Assembly (NCBI RefSeq): GCF_008329435.1
Contig: NZ_NPKN01000001.1
Coordinates: forward strand, 620,001 to 684,000
DNA: 64,000 nucleotides
Origin: Rhodanobacter sp. T12-5
GTDB lineage: Bacteria > Pseudomonadota > Gammaproteobacteria > Xanthomonadales > Rhodanobacteraceae
Reading direction: 5' to 3'
The position numbers were made by a program, and so were the translations under genes. Shown in pieces: positions 24,405 to 32,412 of this stretch; the first letter of the stretch is position 1; every line of letters starts with the position of its first letter. The notes beneath the pieces are model-generated. The model had not been told where the DNA came from and made no database searches. It saw nothing but the letters and a program-made list of their open reading frames with translations.

Positions 24405-27008
24405 TCAGCCCGCCTTGTCACCCGCCGTGTGCGCAATCCACGCGCCGATCACCGCCGACACGTACGGGATCGACTGCGCGGCGAGGATGAAAATCCACAG
24501 GGTGCCTTCGATGTATCGCGTGCCGAAGAATTCGGCCATGCCGAAGATGCACAGTGCCAGCGCGATCGCCATCAGCCCTTCCTCGCGCACCGGCGCGAAG
24601 GCGGCGAAGTTGCTGCCGCCCAGGCGCCGGCTCTTGGCGGTGACCACGAACGAGGTCTTCTCGCGGGTCAGGCCGTGCAGGATGCCGCGGGCGATCGCAT
24701 GCGACAGGCCCATGCTGGCGAGCGATGCCATCAGCGTGTCGCGCCAGCTGCACGGCACGCGGGCGCGATACAGCACGATGCCGAAGATCGCCTTGGCGAA
24801 GAAGAAGCCGATCACGGGGATCAGGAACAGCTGCATCGGCAGGCTGAAATACTGCGGATACGCGACCATGCCGGCGGTCCAGAAGATCGCCATCAGGGTG
24901 AAGATCAGGTGCAGCGCATCGGCAAACCAGCTGAACCAGCCAGTGAGGAAGTGGAAGCGCTGGCCGGCCGACAGCGGCCCGGCCTTGGTCATCCAGTCCC
25001 AGCGACCCTTGAGGATCTGCATCGCGCCGAACGCCCAGCGATAGCGCTGGCTCTTGTACGCCTTGAAGTCGGCCGGGGTCAGGCCCTTGCCCATCAGCTC
25101 GTCGACATAGACCAGGTCGTAGCCGGAGTGCATCAGGCGCAGGCCGAGCTCGGCGTCCTCGCAGATCGTCCACTCGGACCAGCCGCCGGTGCCTTCCAGT
25201 GCGGTGCGCCGTACCATGGTCATGGTGCCGTGCTGGATGATCGCGTTGCGCTCGTTGCGGTGATGCATGCCGATGCGGAAGAAGCCGTCGTATTCCCACG
25301 CGGTCATCCGCCGGAACGCGTTGTGCTCGAACTCGCGATGCGCCTGCGGGCACTGCACCACGGCCACCTTCGGGTCATGGAAATAGCCGGTGAGCGTGGC
25401 CAGCCAGTCCGAACGCACCTCGTAGTCGGCGTCGATCACCGCCACCACATCGGCCTGCGGGTCGGTTTCCTTCAGGCCGAAGTTCAGCGCGCCGGCCTTG
25501 TAGCCGGGCCACGGCTCCAGATGGAAGAAGCGGAAGCGCTTGCCGAGCTTCTCGCAGTATTCCTGCACCGGCTGCCACACGGCCGGGTCCTTCGTGTTGT
25601 TGTCGATCACCAGCACTTCGTAGTTGGCGTAGTCCAGTGCCGCCAGCGAATCGAGCGTGATGATCACCATCTCCGGCGGCTCGTTGTAGCAGGCCAGATG
25701 GATCGACACGAACGGCTGCCGGTCCGGCGGATCGGGCGTCAACATGCTCGCGTGGCGTCTCCACTCGCGCCGCCACAGCACCTCGGTGAACTCGAAGCCG
25801 TTGATCAGCAGGATCGCCAGGATCGCGATCTGCGCCGGGAACAGCAGCGTGAGCATGGTCCAGTCGATCCAGCTCAGGTAGAAGTTGAACGGCAACGTGG
25901 CCGACCACGTCAGCAGGCCGCAGGCGAGCTGGATCAGCATGCAGAAGAACAGCCGCCCCATCAGCTTGAAACGGCTGAAACGCCGTGCGAACAGGATCAT
26001 CGGCAACAGCGCCAGCAGGCTCGCCGCCAGCGCCTTCCACGGCCAGCCGGTGTCCTCGGTCACCGGCCCGGTGAACGGGAACTTCAGCTGGCGATCGGCG
26101 TTGAAGATGCCCCAGTACGCCTCGGTGCGACCCGACAGCTGTTCCTTCCACGGCTGGTCGAACGCTTCCATCAGGTAGTAGTCGATGTGGCGCTGCTTCG
26201 CTGCCAGCAACCATTCGCGGATGAAGATCGCCTCGTTCGAAATGGACGGATCGGCGTGCTCATGACGATCGCCATTTGACGGCCAGCCGATTTCGCCGAC
26301 CACGACGTGTTTGTACGGAAAACGCTGCTGCAGCTGCTGGTACGAGCCCAGCGCCGCGTCCAGCGCCACCCCGTTGGCGACCGGTATGCCGTTCCAGAAC
26401 GGGAAGATGTGGATCGTGATGAAGTCGACGTGATCGGCCAGTTCGGGATATTTCAGCCAGATGTATTCCGGCTCGGCGATCGACACCGGCTGGTGCACGG
26501 CGGCACGCACGCGGTCGAGGTAGGCCATCATCTGCTGCGGCGTGAGGTCGTTGCGGAACAGCACCTCGTTGCCGACGATGACGCGGGTGATGGTGTCGGG
26601 GTACTCGCGCGCCTTGGCGATCAGCGCCTCGATCTCCTTCTCGTTGTTCTCCATGCGCCGCCCGATCTCGGCGCCAGCCATCACCTTCAGGCCGTCCTTC
26701 GCGGCCAGCCGGTAGGTTTGCGGGTTGACCAGCATCGAATACGTGCGGATGCGGTCGGAATAGCGCGCGACCAGCTTGAGATCGCGGTCGATCTCGGCGT
26801 CGCTGGGGTAATCCTGCTTGATCGGGTCCTGATAGCGCTGGAACGAGGAAAACGCGAAGCCGCCGATCTTGCCGTGCCAGTCATCCGGGCCATGCGGCAG
26901 GTTGCCCCACCACCACAGCCCGATATTCATCGCCGCCACGACCAGCGCAAGCACGATGGCGGTGAGCAAGGGGAATCGGCTGTCGTGATTTGCTGCAGTG
27001 GCGCTCAA
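24405..27008 (-). CDS. GH17-like glycosidase domain fused to processive GT2 glycosyltransferase
   Basis: An 867-residue inner-membrane fusion. After one membrane helix (about 14-32) comes a GH17-like domain (40-320) with both expected catalytic glutamates: E148 in VIVGNEVLF and E239 in VVGEIGWPSNG. A membrane bundle (about 325-410) leads to a family 2 glycosyltransferase domain with DAD (526-528), ED (617-618) and QRYRW (654-658), the signature of processive synthases, and further helices to the C-terminus. The architecture resembles NdvB/NdvC-type beta-1,3/1,6-glucan synthases, in which GH17 trims or cyclises the product. The likely start is TTG at 27008 (NFLSATAANHDS region) after a GGGGAA site; an ATG at 27266 would add 86 unconserved-looking residues. 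Confidence 0.88.
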   Translation of the reverse strand: MSATAANHDSRFPLLTAIVLALVVAAMNIGLWWWGNLPHGPDDWHGKIGGFAFSSFQRYQDPIKQDYPSDAEIDRDLKLVARYSDRIRTYSMLVNPQTYRLAAKDGLKVMAGAEIGRRMENNEKEIEALIAKAREYPDTITRVIVGNEVLFRNDLTPQQMMAYLDRVRAAVHQPVSIAEPEYIWLKYPELADHVDFITIHIFPFWNGIPVANGVALDAALGSYQQLQQRFPYKHVVVGEIGWPSNGDRHEHADPSISNEAIFIREWLLAAKQRHIDYYLMEAFDQPWKEQLSGRTEAYWGIFNADRQLKFPFTGPVTEDTGWPWKALAASLLALLPMILFARRFSRFKLMGRLFFCMLIQLACGLLTWSATLPFNFYLSWIDWTMLTLLFPAQIAILAILLINGFEFTEVLWRREWRRHASMLTPDPPDRQPFVSIHLACYNEPPEMVIITLDSLAALDYANYEVLVIDNNTKDPAVWQPVQEYCEKLGKRFRFFHLEPWPGYKAGALNFGLKETDPQADVVAVIDADYEVRSDWLATLTGYFHDPKVAVVQCPQAHREFEHNAFRRMTAWEYDGFFRIGMHHRNERNAIIQHGTMTMVRRTALEGTGGWSEWTICEDAELGLRLMHSGYDLVYVDELMGKGLTPADFKAYKSQRYRWAFGAMQILKGRWDWMTKAGPLSAGQRFHFLTGWFSWFADALHLIFTLMAIFWTAGMVAYPQYFSLPMQLFLIPVIGFFFAKAIFGIVLYRARVPCSWRDTLMASLASMGLSHAIARGILHGLTREKTSFVVTAKSRRLGGSNFAAFAPVREEGLMAIALALCIFGMAEFFGTRYIEGTLWIFILAAQSIPYVSAVIGAWIAHTAGDKAG

Positions 27009-27568
27009 AAAATTCCCCGGCGGAAGCCTGCGCAACAGGCGGTAAAGCCGCAGAAGCTTAACGAATGTGAGGCCAACGGCCAATAAATCCCCTTCCGGTG
27101 GGTGGGATGCCGAGCCAGAGGCCCCCTCGATGCCGGGGTGGCAGCCGCGCAGCGGGCATGACGGCAAGTCGCCGAGGCCTCGACTCGCCAGGGCACTTTT
27201 GAGGGGGAGAGCCAGGTCAGGGCGTGCGGCGGCCCGCTGCCTTTGGCCCGGTGCATTTTTCGACATGCCGGATCTTGCGGGTCGTCCGGCGCAGGAACTG
27301 AAGCGTGTGTCAGCAGCCGTTCTTCCCGGAAAGTTCTGGTGGAGCCGATGCGTGTTCGTCTGGCCATATATCGCGAATCGGCGAGTGCATGTCGCCGTTT
27401 GATTGTGGCGCTGGCCGCATATTCCACAAACAAGTTCTTGCGGATGGTCGCCAATTACGAAAATGTCCTATGGACTCACGGCAGCTCAGTCCGGATAGTG
27501 CCGCCGGTCTTCTATCGGGACGATGAGCGCATCGCAGTCCTCCGGTAGCGCAGTCGATTTGCCCAGGG
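27009..27568. other. Long intergenic region before the bacteriocin export operon
   Basis: This 560-bp stretch separates divergent genes and holds the promoters of both the glucan-synthase gene and the export operon. It becomes AT-richer toward 27360-27500, the likely control region of the operon. I found no convincing promoter pair, no double-glycine peptide and no supported gene; short open frames here lack ribosome sites. Confidence 0.4.
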
Positions 27569-28861
27569 ATGGATTACGTTTTGTCGCAAGGTTTGTTTCG
27601 TCAGGAAGTCATCGACGCGAAGCGCGGTGAATGGTTGGGTTCGATCATCGTGGCCGCACCGCTGTCGCGCTGGCTGCTGACGGCGCTGACACTCGCACTG
27701 GCCGCCACCATCCTGCTGTTCCTCTTCTTTGGTCACTACACCCGTCGTGAAACCGTATTTGGGCAGCTGGTGCCAAGCGCCGGTCTGCTCAATCTCGCCG
27801 CGCCCAGCGCGGGCACCATCACTGGTCTTCACGTGCGCGATGGTCAGGCCGTCAAGGCCGGCGATGTATTGCTCGAGCTTTCGAGCGAACAGGACAGTGC
27901 GGCACTGGGCGACACCCACGCGCTGGTCGGGCAGCAACTGGATATCCAGCGATCCCGCCTGCAGGCCGACCTGCTCAACCAGAAAAAATTGTCGAAGCAG
28001 CAAGCCGACGCGCTCCAGGGCAAAATCGTACTGCTGCGTTCGCAGCTCACCCAGATCGCCGGCCAGCTGGCGATCCAGCAGCAGCAGGTCACCAGCAACC
28101 AGCAGATGCTGGAAAAAATCAGGCCGCTGGCCGCCAAGGGTTTTGTCTCGGCGGTGCAGATCCAGCAGCAGGAAGCGGCCGTGCTGGACGCGCAGGCACA
28201 GTACAAGACCCTGGTTCGCCAGCAACTCGATACCCGTCAGCAACTCGATGCCACCGAACAACAACTGGCGCAACTGCCGCTGGACGACGCCGGCAAGCGC
28301 AACGATACCGAGCGCCAGCTCGCCTCGCTGACCCAATCGATGGCGCAGAACGAAATGCAGCGCGCCGTGGTGTTGCGTGCACCGCGTGACGGTGTGGTTT
28401 CCACCGTGTTGCTGAAAGAAGGTCAGATGGTCGGTGCAGGCCAGCCGTTGCTGTCGATCCTGCCCGCCGGGTCGATTTTGCAGGCGCAGCTGCTGGTACC
28501 CAGCCGGGCCATCGGTTTCATCGAGCCGGGCAGCCGGGTGGTGCTTCGCTATCAGGCGTTTCCGTACCAGAAATTCGGGCAGCAGTACGGCGAGGTCACG
28601 GAGATCTCGCGCAGTGCGCTCAGGCCACCGGACATCGCGGCGTTGATGGGACAGCAATCACAGCAGCAGGAGCCGCTGTACCGCGTCCAGGTGAAACTGG
28701 ACAGCCAGCACGTGCTGGCCTACGGCAAACCCGAGTCGGTGAAACCCGGCATGGCGCTGGAAGCCGACATCCTGATGGAAAGGCGACGCTTGATCGAATG
28801 GGTGTTCGAGCCGTTGTACGGCATGGCCCACCACCTGGCGGGAGAGGCGGCGCATGGCTGA
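27569..28861 (+). CDS. HlyD/CvaA-like bacteriocin export adaptor
   Basis: A 430-residue membrane fusion protein. One membrane helix (LLTALTLALAATILLFLFFG, about 35-54) is followed by HYTRRETVFGQLVPSAGLLN and a lipoyl half-motif, a long glutamine-rich coiled coil (about 105-245), and the second half APRDGVVSTVLLKEGQ. This is the CvaA class that pairs with peptidase-containing ABC exporters in colicin V and class II microcin systems. Its end overlaps the exporter start by 8 bp, so the two are translated together. A TolC partner is not encoded in the window and would be supplied from elsewhere. Confidence 0.92.
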   Translation: MDYVLSQGLFRQEVIDAKRGEWLGSIIVAAPLSRWLLTALTLALAATILLFLFFGHYTRRETVFGQLVPSAGLLNLAAPSAGTITGLHVRDGQAVKAGDVLLELSSEQDSAALGDTHALVGQQLDIQRSRLQADLLNQKKLSKQQADALQGKIVLLRSQLTQIAGQLAIQQQQVTSNQQMLEKIRPLAAKGFVSAVQIQQQEAAVLDAQAQYKTLVRQQLDTRQQLDATEQQLAQLPLDDAGKRNDTERQLASLTQSMAQNEMQRAVVLRAPRDGVVSTVLLKEGQMVGAGQPLLSILPAGSILQAQLLVPSRAIGFIEPGSRVVLRYQAFPYQKFGQQYGEVTEISRSALRPPDIAALMGQQSQQQEPLYRVQVKLDSQHVLAYGKPESVKPGMALEADILMERRRLIEWVFEPLYGMAHHLAGEAAHG

Positions 28862-30995
28862 CGGAACACCGATCAAGCAGGGCGCCAGGCCCATGCGTGG
28901 CCATCACGTTGCGCTCCAGTTCGGCTGGTCGCGCAGCCTGCCGATGATGCTGCAGACCGAGGCCGCCGAGTGTGGTCTGGCATGCCTGGCGATGGTCGCG
29001 AGCTATCACGGTCACGATGTCGACCTGGCCGGTTTGCGCCGCAAATTTTCCACCTCGTTGAAGGGCGTCACCCTGGCACGGGTGATGGCGATGGCGGGCC
29101 AGCTCGGCTTCACCTGTCGCCCACTCAAGCTGGACATGGACAACTTGCGCCAGCTCAAGACGCCGTGCCTGCTGCACTGGGATCTCAATCATTTCGTGGT
29201 GCTCAAACGGGTCGGCAAGCGGCGCATCGTTGTCCACGATCCTGCGTACGGCATACGCAAGCTGAGTTGGAAGGAAGTTTCCGAGCATTTCACCGGTGTG
29301 GCGCTGGAGCTCTCTCCGTCGGCGGATTTTGCTCCGGTGAGCGAACGCCAGGCGGTGTCGCTGCGTGCGCTTACCGGCCGCGTGCGTGGCTTGGTGCCAG
29401 CGCTGGCACAGATCCTGTTGCTCGCCTTGGCGCTGGAAGTCTTTGCGCTGGCCGCACCGTTCTACCTGCAATGGGTGCTTGACCAGGTGATGGTCTCGGC
29501 CGATCACGACCTGCTGAGTTTGCTCGGCTTGGGCTTCATCGGCATCGCGGTGTTCTCCGCGCTGGTCACGGCGGCGCGTTCGTGGGCGGTCACCTGGCTG
29601 GGCGCCACCCTCAATGTGCAATGGGCCAGCAACCTGTTCGGCCACCTGATGCAACTGCCGCTGGACTGGTTCGAAAAGCGACACGTGGGTGATGTGGTGT
29701 CGCGCTTCGGCTCCATCCATACCATCCAGCAAACCCTCACCACACAGTTCATCGGCTCGCTACTCGATGGCCTGATGTCACTGGTGACTTTAGTGGTGAT
29801 GGGCTTCTACAGCCTTTGGCTCACCGCGCTGGTCGTCGGCCTGTTCTTGGCCTACGGACTGATTCGCTGGGCATTCTTCAATCCGCTGCGCCAGGCGAAC
29901 GAGGAACAGATCGTCTGTGGTGCGCGCCAGCAAAGCGAACTCCTGGAATCCATCCGTGGCGCCATGCCAATCAAGCTGGCCAACAAGCAAGACGAGCGGC
30001 TGTCCCGCTACGCAAATGCGACTGTCTCCACCATCAATCGCGGGATCGGCATCCAGCGTTTGAGCATAGCTTTCACGCTTAGCAATCAGTTGCTGTTCGG
30101 TATCGGCCGGGTGGTGATGATCTGGATTGCCGCCACGCTGGCACTCGAGAACAGATTCACGGCCGGTGCGCTGATCGCCTTCATCGCTTACGCCGATCAA
30201 TTTATCAGTCGCGCCGCTGCATTGATCGATAAGTGGGTGGACTTCAGCATGCTGAAGCTGCATGCGGAGCGAGTGGCGGATATCGCGCTGACCTCGCCGG
30301 AACAACGTGCGGAAACGGCGTGGAACGGCCCGATTCCCGAAGCTAGCATCGAACTGTGCAACGTCAGCTTCCGTTACGCGGAGAACGAGCCTTGGATACT
30401 CAAAAACTGCAATCTTAAGGTCGAAGCCGGGGAGTCAGTCGCAATCACTGGGCCTAGCGGTTGCGGCAAGAGCACGCTGGCAAAGATCGCCCTGGGTTTG
30501 CTCGAGCCCACCGAGGGCGTGGTGAAGTTCGGCGGAATCGACATCCGAAAGTTGGGTTTGGATTATTACCGCCAGCTTGTCGCGTCGGTAATGCAGAGCG
30601 ACCAGCTTTTCGCAGGGACGATCGCAGACAACATCAGTTTTTTCGATACCGCTCAGGATTTGGAGCGGATGCTGGTTGTCTCTCAACTGGCACAAATACA
30701 CGCGGACATCATGGCGATGCCGATGGGTTATCAAAGTTTGGTGGGCGACATGGGATCCAGTCTATCCGGCGGACAAAAGCAACGGGTGATTCTCGCGAGG
30801 GCACTATATCGGAAGCCTTTGCTATTGCTGCTTGACGAGGCAACTAGTCACTTGGACATGGCAAAAGAGCGTGAGGTAAACCTAGCCATAGGAGGTTTAA
30901 ATCTTACCAGAGTCGTGATCGCGCATCGCTCGGAAACGATAGATTCTGCGGGCAGGACTATCTGCCTCGACGAAGTCGCTCGCGGGTCGCTATAG
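28854..30995 (+). CDS. C39-peptidase ABC transporter (CvaB-like bacteriocin processing/export)
   Basis: A 713-residue exporter. The N-terminal C39 protease (residues 25-160) has catalytic Cys40 in EAAECGLACLAM, His113 in DLNHFVVL and Asp129 in VHDPAYG, so it should cut substrates after a Gly-Gly leader. Six membrane helices (about 170-460) and an ATPase domain follow: Walker A GPSGCGKST at 533-541, signature LSGGQKQR, Walker B LLLLDEATSHLD and the switch His in VIAHRSE. The reading frame is intact, but base composition drops strongly in the last third (27 G+C of 60 bases at 30841-30900), suggesting a recombination junction. Small peptide genes begin 56 bp downstream. Confidence 0.94.
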   Translation: MADGTPIKQGARPMRGHHVALQFGWSRSLPMMLQTEAAECGLACLAMVASYHGHDVDLAGLRRKFSTSLKGVTLARVMAMAGQLGFTCRPLKLDMDNLRQLKTPCLLHWDLNHFVVLKRVGKRRIVVHDPAYGIRKLSWKEVSEHFTGVALELSPSADFAPVSERQAVSLRALTGRVRGLVPALAQILLLALALEVFALAAPFYLQWVLDQVMVSADHDLLSLLGLGFIGIAVFSALVTAARSWAVTWLGATLNVQWASNLFGHLMQLPLDWFEKRHVGDVVSRFGSIHTIQQTLTTQFIGSLLDGLMSLVTLVVMGFYSLWLTALVVGLFLAYGLIRWAFFNPLRQANEEQIVCGARQQSELLESIRGAMPIKLANKQDERLSRYANATVSTINRGIGIQRLSIAFTLSNQLLFGIGRVVMIWIAATLALENRFTAGALIAFIAYADQFISRAAALIDKWVDFSMLKLHAERVADIALTSPEQRAETAWNGPIPEASIELCNVSFRYAENEPWILKNCNLKVEAGESVAITGPSGCGKSTLAKIALGLLEPTEGVVKFGGIDIRKLGLDYYRQLVASVMQSDQLFAGTIADNISFFDTAQDLERMLVVSQLAQIHADIMAMPMGYQSLVGDMGSSLSGGQKQRVILARALYRKPLLLLLDEATSHLDMAKEREVNLAIGGLNLTRVVIAHRSETIDSAGRTICLDEVARGSL

Positions 30996-31051
30996 GTGCG
31001 CTTTGTTCCACCTGATGCGGTTATTTTCTCTGAGAACTACAAGGAGCTGTA

Positions 31052-31204
31052 ATGAAAGCCTTGGCTTGTGTTGAAAGCGCGCTGGCAAATAGCCCGTTTG
31101 CCGTTCGCGTGGCAGTGATCGTGCTTGCTTCGTTGGTTGTGTTTGCCATGGCCGCGTACGCAGGAACGAGTATTGGGCGAGCGTTGTATTACTTATCTCA
31201 TTAA
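31052..31204 (+). CDS. Small hydrophobic peptide, leaderless relative of the third peptide
   Basis: A 50-residue peptide with an excellent AAGGAG ribosome site. It begins MKALACVESALANSPFAV, has no Gly-Gly leader, then a hydrophobic stretch (VAVIVLASLVVFAMAAY) and ends AGTSIGRALYYLSH. Aligned without gaps from the C-terminus, its last 33 residues match the third peptide of this cluster (31417-31617) at 13 positions, including A-G-x-S-I-G-R/K and the final H. I infer a paralogue that stays in the cell membrane, for example as an immunity or antidote peptide; a leaderless bacteriocin is the other option. No known family is recognised. Confidence 0.75.
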   Translation: MKALACVESALANSPFAVRVAVIVLASLVVFAMAAYAGTSIGRALYYLSH

Positions 31205-31216
31205 AAGGAGCTCGAA

Positions 31217-31375
31217 ATGCAAGTCCTTCAGGAACGCGAACTGGAAGAGGTTAATGGCGGTATTGCTGGTTTGGTTGTCGCTGGCATTATTGTTGGTGGA
31301 ATTGCACTTGTCGGATTGGCCGTGGGCATCTACAACGGCTATAAAGCAGCCGAGCACGATGCGGCGAAAAAGTAA
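31217..31375 (+). CDS. Class II bacteriocin-like precursor with double-glycine leader (peptide A)
   Basis: A 52-residue precursor, ribosome site AAAGGAG. The first 15 residues (MQVLQERELEEVNGG) form a textbook double-glycine leader with acidic and hydrophobic residues at the usual spacing. The predicted mature peptide has 37 residues: a hydrophobic Gly/Val/Ile helix with a GIIVGG (GxxxG) motif, then a polar tail KAAEHDAAKK. This shape fits one half of a two-peptide, membrane-inserting bacteriocin. It lies 12 bp after the leaderless gene and 41 bp before the next precursor, downstream of the matching C39 exporter. Confidence 0.85.
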   Translation: MQVLQERELEEVNGGIAGLVVAGIIVGGIALVGLAVGIYNGYKAAEHDAAKK

Positions 31376-31416
31376 GTAATGCTCACTATTGCTGAACAAA
31401 CTAAAAAGGGGGTTTC

Positions 31417-31617
31417 ATGAGCGCAGGAATTGTGCTGGCAAATCATGGTTCGCTTATTGAATTGAACGACGGCGAAATTCAAGAGGTTTCCGGAGGGGTC
31501 ATTGGGGCGGTTTTCCTGGGGGTAGCTGCTGTGGCCATTGCAGGCCTCACGGTATACACCTTGGCCGAAAGTGCGGGTGAGTCAATCGGCAAGTTCGCCT
31601 ATAATGTGACGCACTGA
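31417..31617 (+). CDS. Class II bacteriocin-like precursor with double-glycine leader (peptide B)
   Basis: A 66-residue precursor with ribosome site AAGGGGG. Its 27-residue leader ends IELNDGEIQEVSGG, very close to the consensus L-x-x-x-E-I-x-x-V-S-G-G. The predicted mature peptide has 39 residues: a hydrophobic helix (VIGAVFLGVAAVAIAGL) and an amphipathic end ESAGESIGKFAYNVTH with a GESIG (GxxxG) motif. With peptide A it makes a plausible two-component bacteriocin. The 50-residue leaderless peptide upstream resembles its mature part. A strong hairpin terminator follows 46 bp after the stop. Confidence 0.87.
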   Translation: MSAGIVLANHGSLIELNDGEIQEVSGGVIGAVFLGVAAVAIAGLTVYTLAESAGESIGKFAYNVTH

Positions 31618-31663
31618 CTTTTCCGGTCGCTCTAGGAGCACCGGTAGCCGTTGACTAAGGCCG

Positions 31664-31706
31664 CTGGCGTGGTTCATAGATGCACCACGCCAGTTGGTTT
31701 GGTTTT
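31664..31706 (+). terminator. Intrinsic terminator of the bacteriocin operon
   Basis: A perfect 10-bp stem (CTGGCGTGGT with ACCACGCCAG) around a 10-base loop is followed by the T-rich tract TTGGTTTGGTTTT. It lies after peptide B and should end the export/peptide operon, leaving the fourth candidate downstream in a separate unit or as read-through. Confidence 0.8.
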
Positions 31707-32082
31707 CACCACGGTTTTTTGTTGGCGTCAGCGCGCAGCCAAGCGACCACCACGGTGCGGTGGATCTGCGATCGTTTCAGCTACCAATGATCGGTTGCGG
31801 GCACATTGATGCTCGGCAGCTCCCCGTGCTGCAGTCGAACGAGCTGCCACCCATGGCCGGTCCTGATTAGTGACGACGCTCAGCCAAAAAAATTGTTGAC
31901 TGGAAATCGGGGTCGGAGTATCGCTGTTGGACGGTCCTCTGTTTTTGCGTATGAACGCATCGGGAATCGTGTTTTGCAGCCTGTTTTGCGTGTTATTTAT
32001 AGGGCGAGCCGTAATTAATTGTTCGACTGGGTCGTGCCGTTGTTGAGGCGGTCTTTCCTCGCCTTTGCAGAAGTAGCAGGTA
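31707..32082. other. AT-enriched stretch between the bacteriocin operon and the fourth candidate
   Basis: No gene is supported over these 376 bp. G+C content is lower than in the core genome parts of the window, with patches such as GTGTTATTTATAGGG and CCGTAATTAATTGT (31990-32025) that could hold a promoter for the following small ORF. Two short open frames here lack ribosome sites and leader motifs. The stretch may be debris of transferred DNA. Confidence 0.4.
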
Positions 32083-32316
32083 GTGAAAATCATCAATGCG
32101 GATGACGTGAAGGCCGTTGCTGGTGGCGCGTCAGGCACCTCCAACGAAGGGTTGCCTTGGTGGGTTCCTGTGTTGGGTAATCCCGACCACCTTCCTCCAG
32201 GCTTCCCCGGCACCCCGGGCGGCCCCGTCCTTCCTCCCAGCACTTTCTGCACGATTTTGCTGAATACCCGAGGAAATCCCCTGGCTCTGCCAGGGATACT
32301 TGTTTTTGCCATATGA
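32083..32316 (+). CDS. Candidate Pro/Gly-rich secreted peptide with double-glycine leader
   Basis: A 77-residue ORF starting at GTG, with a stop codon three codons upstream so no longer form exists. The first 15 residues, MKIINADDVKAVAGG, look like a short double-glycine leader (D-D-V-x-x-V-A-G-G). The 62-residue remainder is unlike peptides A and B: it is rich in Pro and Gly (LPPGFPGTPGGPVLPP), has a Trp pair (GLPWWVPVLG), one Cys and a hydrophobic end. The ribosome site is weak (GCAGG close to the start). It could be a second substrate of the C39 exporter or a chance ORF; no family is recognised. Confidence 0.55.
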   Translation: MKIINADDVKAVAGGASGTSNEGLPWWVPVLGNPDHLPPGFPGTPGGPVLPPSTFCTILLNTRGNPLALPGILVFAI

Positions 32317-32412
32317 ATCAGACAACCAGGAAACTACGCACGCCGTCGGCTGTTTCACCGTGGACGTGAGTTTCCGCTCTCTTTCCCGCAAGACCGGACA
32401 TGGACAACGCTG

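What the first reader, a model, noticed from the sequence alone, without database searches (positions are those of the whole stretch)
27569..31706. Probable two-peptide class II bacteriocin/microcin locus in a high-GC gammaproteobacterium
A CvaA-like adaptor and C39 exporter with full catalytic triad are followed by two precursors with excellent double-glycine leaders. Both predicted mature peptides (37 and 39 residues) are hydrophobic helices with GxxxG motifs, as in two-peptide bacteriocins, and a terminator closes the unit. Such systems are well known in Firmicutes but little studied in this lineage. I do not recognise these peptides.
Basis: partly seen in the sequence, partly recalled or inferred. 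Interest (0 to 1): 0.85.

Follow-up and report, generated by a model that had tools for sequence, protein, structure and literature searches.

The report
Two-peptide bacteriocin with leaderless toxin twin
A Rhodanobacter-like bacterium carries a small export cassette for two bacteriocin-like peptides, and beside them a tiny gene whose product looks like one of the two peptides without its export tag, which may be how the cell protects itself from its own weapon.

Summary
The reported genes are real: a CvaA/HlyD adaptor, a C39-peptidase ABC exporter with intact triad and two double-glycine precursors (ORF2, 52 aa; ORF3, 66 aa), closed by a strong hairpin. ORF2 passes NCBI's lactobin A/cerein 7B model; ORF3 does not. 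The exporter family is common; its cargo differs between strains.

Its last 31 residues match mature ORF3 (42% identity; 0 of 5000 shuffles). The trio leaderless/B/A recurs in two genomes of the Massilia group, and each leaderless protein scores best with its own A peptide. Lone ORF1 relatives, with neither peptide intact beside them, occur in five further genomes; two of these, near-complete, also lack a close exporter. ORF1 against one of them shows purifying selection (dN 0.18, dS 0.77).

Best reading: a two-peptide bacteriocin whose immunity protein is an unexported relative of one toxin subunit, acting as a decoy subunit in the inner membrane. Genes, leaders and kinship are shown by sequence; killing, immunity and the decoy step are inferred. 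New variant of a known kind.

The parts
27569..28861 (+). HlyD/CvaA-like periplasmic adaptor of a type I exporter
   Evidence: Pfam HlyD_3, E 1.6e-19; overlaps the exporter gene by 8 bases
28854..30995 (+). C39-peptidase ABC exporter (PCAT), expected to cleave double-glycine leaders
   Evidence: Peptidase_C39 E 3.3e-36, ABC_membrane, ABC_tran; Cys/His/Asp motifs in place
31052..31204 (+).
   Evidence: Score 68 to mature ORF3, next best of 951 frames in the window 37; profile of six leaderless proteins finds ORF3 at E 1.7e-5; dN 0.18, dS 0.77 against the G061 copy; ribosome site AAGGAG
31217..31375 (+). ORF2, peptide B precursor, 15-aa leader ending GG, mature 37 aa
   Evidence: TIGR03949 34.4 bits, cut-off 21.5; relatives in the L123 and L101 modules
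31417..31617 (+). ORF3, peptide A precursor, 27-aa leader ending GG, mature 39 aa
   Evidence: TIGR03949 16.6 bits, below cut-off; relatives in the L123 and L101 modules
31658..31700 (+). Hairpin with partly U-rich tail, probable terminator
   Evidence: -27.6 kcal/mol, z -4.5
27089..32412 (.). Block present here and absent between the same two flanking genes (glycosyltransferase, M16 peptidase) in three relatives
   Evidence: Empty sites in L134, L137, L139; homology stops at about 27088-27102 and resumes at the M16 gene

Best explanation
The unit is a two-peptide double-glycine bacteriocin cassette. The C39 exporter with its HlyD adaptor (and presumably a TolC encoded elsewhere) cuts the leaders of ORF2 and ORF3 and exports peptide B (37 aa) and peptide A (39 aa), which insert together into the membrane of competing, probably related, cells. 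ORF1 is the immunity protein. It is a relative of peptide A that has the helix and the C-terminal AGxSIGxxxY tail but a short cytoplasmic-type N-terminus in place of a leader, so it stays in the producer's inner membrane. There it most likely acts as a decoy subunit: same helix and tail as inserted peptide A, pairing with peptide B, peptide A or their receptor without making a working pore. Shown by sequence: the genes, the leaders, the exporter, the ORF1/ORF3 kinship, recurrence of the trio, selection on ORF1, lone ORF1 copies. Inferred: export itself, killing, immunity, topology, the decoy step.
For: Exporter and leaders. ORF1 matches mature ORF3 over 31 residues at 42%; score 68 against a shuffle mean of 25, 0 of 1000, 0 of 5000 when helix and tail are shuffled apart, best of 951 other frames in the window with 37 next. 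A profile of six leaderless proteins, ORF3 left out, finds ORF3 at E 1.7e-5. The trio recurs in L123 (same order) and L101 (order A, leaderless, B); peptide B was not used to find them. In 3 of 3 modules the leaderless protein scores highest with its own A peptide (68, 51, 52; with the others 20-51) and low with B peptides (17-29). Lone relatives: G061 (79% identity over 47 aa) and G239 (52% over 44), genomes 100% and 99% complete with no exporter match at E 1e-80 or better, no convincing B and no A reported; G650 and G796 (scores to ORF1 81 and 73, 0 of 1000 shuffles each), with no A, B, adaptor or exporter seen in the 12.0 and 17.5 kb around them; and L110, followed by a closed 12-codon piece ALGRAVYLMTHK like the A tail. 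ORF1 against the G061 copy: dN 0.184, dS 0.769, Fisher p 1.9e-4. A proven two-peptide immunity protein, CbnZ, has 42 aa and one helix; others of 52-55 aa are named (PMC6957408, passages).
Against: No activity data of any kind. Three complete modules only, two of them reached through ORF1/A similarity. Lone copies (five) outnumber modules (three), which also fits a small membrane protein with a life of its own. Cognate preference is weak in one module: L123's leaderless protein scores 51 with its own A and 49 with ORF3, and ORF1 ties it on L123's A at 51. A toxin-like leaderless neighbour is not general: among 58 hydrophobic double-glycine candidates in 40 of 98 loci only these three have one. 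In the passages I read on immunity proteins of microcins and two-peptide bacteriocins, resemblance to the toxin is not mentioned. Five of the six leaderless proteins aligned have an N-terminal stretch that mature A lacks, so a decoy role is not the only way to read them. L123 has no adaptor or exporter in the 17 kb around it; the only strong match in its genome is partial and far away. L110's genome has adaptor and exporter about 5 kb off, so that copy is lone only as to the peptides. Whole-genome absence of A, B and exporter was not tested in G650 and G796.
Confidence: 0.55

Rival explanations
1. ORF1 is a small inner-membrane protein with a function of its own, and peptide A arose from it by gaining a leader. 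Its immunity role, if any, is a by-product.
For: Lone relatives outnumber the modules (five to three) and lie among unrelated genes, for example between kup and ruvB in G061; G061 and G239 have no close exporter; ORF1 and the G061 copy are under purifying selection.
Against: Relatives are rare and patchy: 3 of 233 genomes in the family, own included, 5 of 392 around the Massilia genome, none but the own one among 369 of the class. Each leaderless protein in a module scores best with its own A peptide.
Confidence: 0.2
2. ORF1 is a third, leaderless toxin subunit that leaves the cell by another route, so the weapon has three parts.
For: It shares helix and tail with peptide A and sits first in the peptide unit.
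Against: No leader for the C39 exporter; it occurs without A and B, and in G061 and G239 without a close exporter, which suits a protector better than a toxin part.
Confidence: 0.1
3. ORF2 and ORF3 are not bacteriocins but signals or other peptides sent out by a general exporter.
For: Cargo candidates at related loci include threonine-rich and polar peptides. TIGR03949 is met by ORF2 only.
Against: Two hydrophobic glycine-rich peptides in one unit with a single-helix protein fit bacteriocins; change of cargo from strain to strain fits competition.
Confidence: 0.13
4. The peptides kill by contact, as Caulobacter CdzC/D do, from aggregates on the producer surface. This can be true together with the best explanation.
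For: Same architecture (exporter, adaptor, two small leader peptides, small membrane protein) and leader end; Cdz-like systems are reported as widespread in gammaproteobacteria (PMC5380434).
Against: ORF2 is shorter than the 60-151 residues of that published set; ORF1 has one hydrophobic helix, CdzI three; ORF3 has no zipper in its helix.
Confidence: 0.2
5. ORF1 is a decayed copy of the A gene with no function.
For: It lacks a leader and lies near the A gene.
Against: Good ribosome site, intact frame in eight genomes, dN well below dS.
Confidence: 0.03

Closest known systems
Class IIb two-peptide bacteriocins, lactobin A/cerein 7B family (NCBIfam TIGR03949)
   Same: Double-glycine leaders, two small hydrophobic glycine-rich peptides in one unit, C39 exporter; ORF2 over the curated cut-off.
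   Different: ORF3 under the cut-off; export with an HlyD adaptor; a leaderless relative of one peptide in the unit.
Caulobacter CdzABCDI (PMC5380434; abstract, passages and sections 12-13 read)
   Same: Type I exporter and adaptor, two small leader peptides, small membrane immunity protein.
   Different: CdzC/D are 86 and 84 aa with extended glycine zippers, and CdzI has three predicted helices and no obvious homologues; here 52 and 66 aa, and ORF1 has one helix and resembles ORF3.
Carnobacteriocin XY with CbnZ (PMC6957408; abstract and passages read)
   Same: Two-peptide bacteriocin with a proven 42-aa, single-helix immunity protein, the nearest in size and shape to ORF1.
   Different: Gram-positive; the passages I saw do not speak of likeness between CbnZ and CbnX or CbnY; I did not test it.
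Class II microcins such as MccV (PMC9746304, PMC10233263; passages read)
   Same: C39 exporter with triad, adaptor, double-glycine precursor, small membrane immunity protein.
   Different: A pair of short mature peptides (37 and 39 aa); no serine-rich siderophore end of the class IIb microcins (read from the sequence); immunity candidate is toxin-like.
Moraxella mcbABCI (PMC2761928; abstract and passages read)
   Same: Adaptor, exporter, short double-glycine peptide, very short immunity gene in one operon.
   Different: One peptide, precursor of 101 aa; McbI 74 aa without similarity to other proteins.

Membership tests
Class IIb two-peptide bacteriocin | Two adjacent precursors with double-glycine leaders | tested here: met
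   ORF2 and ORF3
[quoted passage not shown]
   Three GxxxG in mature ORF2; in mature ORF3 only in the C-terminal tail (read from the sequence)
Class IIb two-peptide bacteriocin | NCBIfam TIGR03949 curated cut-off (lactobin A/cerein 7B) | tested here: inconclusive
   ORF2 34.4 bits met, ORF3 16.6 not met, cut-off 21.5
Class IIb two-peptide bacteriocin | Both peptides needed for full killing | not testable with these tools
   needs purified peptides
Class IIb two-peptide bacteriocin | Dedicated membrane immunity protein in the cluster | tested here: inconclusive
   ORF1 is a candidate by place, helix and lone copies; function untested
Class II microcin | C39 ABC exporter with catalytic triad and HlyD adaptor | tested here: met
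Class II microcin | TolC-type outer membrane partner in the genome | not tested
   no search made
Class II microcin | Antibacterial activity | not testable with these tools
   bench work
Cdz-like contact-dependent system | Toxins of 60-151 residues (published screen) | tested here: not met
   ORF2 has 52 residues, ORF3 66 (criterion)
Cdz-like contact-dependent system | Leader ending G[G/A/S] | tested here: met
   both end GG
Cdz-like contact-dependent system | Killing by contact through surface aggregates | not testable with these tools
   bench work

The most novel reading that the evidence does not exclude
Immunity by subunit mimicry: a bacteriocin cassette whose self-protection is an unexported relative of one toxin peptide, held in the inner membrane, changing together with its own toxin, and kept as a lone resistance gene by bacteria that do not make the toxin.
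Probability: 0.35. Interest if true: 0.8.

Novelty: new variant of a known kind. Interest (0 to 1): 0.6.

Why it matters
A review states that the mode of action of immunity proteins of two-peptide bacteriocins is unknown (PMC8538875, passages), and another that microcin immunity proteins cannot at present be located by conserved sequence features (PMC10233263, passages). If ORF1 is an immunity protein, then in this family the immunity gene can be found by its likeness to the toxin, the mechanism becomes testable with three short genes, and lone ORF1 copies mark strains expected to resist.

Tried and rejected
Single-sequence search for ORF2 in 398 genomes of the order, own included: own match plus one weak match at the end of a 410-aa frame, rejected. 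ORF3 in the same 398: own match only. ORF1 and ORF3 against 72,556 plasmid records: chance-level matches only, E 5 to 7; the L123 and L110 leaderless proteins likewise, E 2 to 8.

re-read every one. Of the 10 genomes with a match at E 0.01 among 392 around the Massilia genome, 5 are real (G417, G418, G431, and the lone copies G650 and G796 that I had first rejected); the other 5 (L125, L127, L128, L129, L130) are not. Of the 20 genomes at E 0.05 among 233 of the family, own, G061 and G239 are real; the 18 other loci from 17 genomes (L156-L172, L174) are not, by eye. Of the 11 genomes among 369 of the class, only the own one is real; 7 of the other 10 matches look like CrcB (name by recall). 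The added lone copies fit both the immunity reading and its first rival; I kept the first at 0.55 and raised the rival from 0.17 to 0.2.

A general rule that such loci carry a leaderless toxin twin was tested and rejected (an earlier run, missed the window's own pair because its leader pattern was too narrow). Literature searches: for toxin-like or orphan immunity, for this lineage or two-peptide microcins, for known systems; two returned no paper, and no listing that I saw names a toxin-like immunity protein. The library lacks most subscription journals.
Full report
What is there. The window lies in a contig of a 3.98 Mb genome; the closest public relatives of the exporter are in Rhodanobacter, Dyella and other Rhodanobacteraceae. 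The C39 motifs with Cys, His and Asp are in place. Mature lengths are 37 and 39 aa. A hairpin after ORF3 is far more stable than shuffles.

What was missed. Between exporter and ORF2 lies ORF1 (31052-31204), 50 aa, with a good ribosome site, one hydrophobic helix and no leader. ORF1 and mature ORF3 align over 31 residues at 42% identity. The match beats all of 1000 plain shuffles and all of 5000 shuffles that keep helix and tail composition apart; the tail alone was matched by 0 of 5000 shuffles; and among 951 stop-to-stop frames of at least 28 aa in the window ORF1 is by far the best match to mature ORF3 after ORF3 itself (68, next 37).

Relatives of the trio. A translated search of the fetched loci pointed to two Massilia loci. 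In Massilia atriviolacea (L101) an A-like precursor, a 34-aa leaderless protein and a B-like precursor stand in a row, with adaptor and exporter starting about 5 kb downstream. A third complete module in L123 (genome G431, drawn by the tool from the genus of that Massilia genome) has the order leaderless, B, A, as in the window. The leaders of A in L123 and ORF3 are also alike. These modules were reached through ORF1/A likeness, so that likeness is not independent evidence; the presence of peptide B beside them is. Each of the three leaderless proteins scores highest with its own A peptide: 68 against 51 and 30; 51 against 49 and 21; 52 against 31 and 20; with B peptides 17 to 29. The L123 margin is thin, and ORF1 scores the same 51 with L123's A.

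Lone copies. A family-wide search of 233 genomes found clear ORF1 relatives in two other genera: G061 (79% over 47 aa, between a kup-type K+ transporter and ruvB) and G239 (52% over 44 aa). Neither genome has an exporter match at E 1e-80 or better; the B profile finds nothing in G061 and one poor match (E 0.028) in a 311-aa frame in G239; no A peptide was reported in either. Around the Massilia genome, 5 of 392 genomes have real relatives: the two complete modules, L110, and lone copies in G650 (45 aa from its ATG) and G796 (a frame that starts at a GTG behind AAAAGGAG, 55 aa). These last two score 81 and 73 with ORF1 and 66 and 48 with mature ORF3, each with 0 of 1000 shuffles as high; for G796 only the last 31 residues were scored. 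In Massilia aquatica (L110) a leaderless protein is followed by a closed 12-codon piece, ALGRAVYLMTHK, like the end of peptide A; the B profile finds nothing in that genome, but adaptor and exporter lie about 4 to 5 kb off. It sits between creC and creD. The window's ORF1 against the G061 copy gives dN 0.184 and dS 0.769 (19 changes at 39.5 synonymous, 18 at 110.5 non-synonymous sites; Fisher p 1.9e-4). A profile of six leaderless proteins, with ORF3 not included, finds ORF3 in the own genome at E 1.7e-5.

The exporter and its changing cargo. In 60 genomes (36 of the genus, own included) the exporter has a match at E 1e-100 in 15, 11 of them in the genus. The adaptor lies within 0.8 kb of the glycosyltransferase gene in 4 and within 2.8 kb in 1 of 16 fetched loci, but the leader peptides that follow the exporter differ from locus to locus; this was looked at in the window and the first 42 oriented loci, some of which are the same place fetched twice. 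ORF2 and ORF3 were not found in the 397 other genomes searched in the order (the one weak ORF2 match is rejected). In 3 of 22 glycosyltransferase loci the M16 gene follows directly without the cassette, and homology to these stops at about 27088-27102 and resumes at the M16 gene. So the cassette is a gained or lost block at a variable site.

Is the toxin twin general? No. In 98 loci I found 58 distinct hydrophobic double-glycine candidates in 40 loci; a leaderless neighbour with significant likeness occurs only in the three modules above. Some other loci have other small hydrophobic proteins near the cargo.

How it most likely works. Export and processing follow from the known work of C39 exporters. 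Two hydrophobic peptides that come together in all three complete modules fit a two-peptide bacteriocin. ORF1 as immunity protein rests on place, helix, lack of leader, selection, and above all lone copies without toxin. Lone copies alone would also fit an ordinary small membrane protein; that is the main rival. The decoy step is inference: an inner-membrane helix entering from inside with its tail outside would lie as peptide A does after entering from outside; this orientation was not tested. Among immunity proteins of two-peptide bacteriocins CbnZ (42 aa, one helix) is proven and others of 52-55 aa are named (PMC6957408, abstract and passages), so the size is no obstacle; the published lower bound for microcin immunity is 51 aa (PMC9746304, passages).

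Known or new. The cassette type is known: class IIb bacteriocins, class II microcins and Cdz. I saw no report of an immunity protein that resembles its toxin in the papers and listings that I opened; the searches aimed at it were made, in an open-access library that lacks most subscription journals. I rate it a new variant of a known kind.

Noticed in passing
window 32083-32316 (+): A 77-aa frame starts VKIINADDVKAVAGG, like a double-glycine leader, with a proline/glycine-rich rest; GTG start, weak ribosome site, no convincing relative in the fetched loci. Possibly a further cargo gene or a relic.
   Followed up: partly
L023 (+148 and +1310 after the exporter match), L044 (+235): Non-hydrophobic, threonine-rich cargo with two cysteines (KTEAGCSTTTTTT...ECHIS) behind the same kind of leader, in two copies in one genome and a similar one in Dyella choica; a different kind of product from the bacteriocin-like ones.
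   Followed up: no
L043 (+116), L048 (+107): Nearly identical cargo VAKNTF(V/I)VKGTTGP(N/Q)GNDGEVQYDREW behind the exporter in Fulvimonas and Frateuria, unlike the otherwise fast-changing cargo.
   Followed up: no
L002 (G000:C15:286038-286442): The genome's second C39 domain (69.4 bits) lies in a 260-aa frame of its own, without ABC parts, beside repeat-rich proteins; it may serve another export route.
   Followed up: no
L110 3484-4473 and 2402-2875; L123 144-668: Two Massilia-group copies sit by cre genes (CreC 413.7 bits, over its cut-off; partial pieces of CreD and CreB under theirs), a two-component locus; possible shared regulation.
   Followed up: partly
window 24405-27266 (-): The glycosyltransferase frame is probably about 80 codons too long as listed: most relatives align only from about residue 80.
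   Followed up: partly
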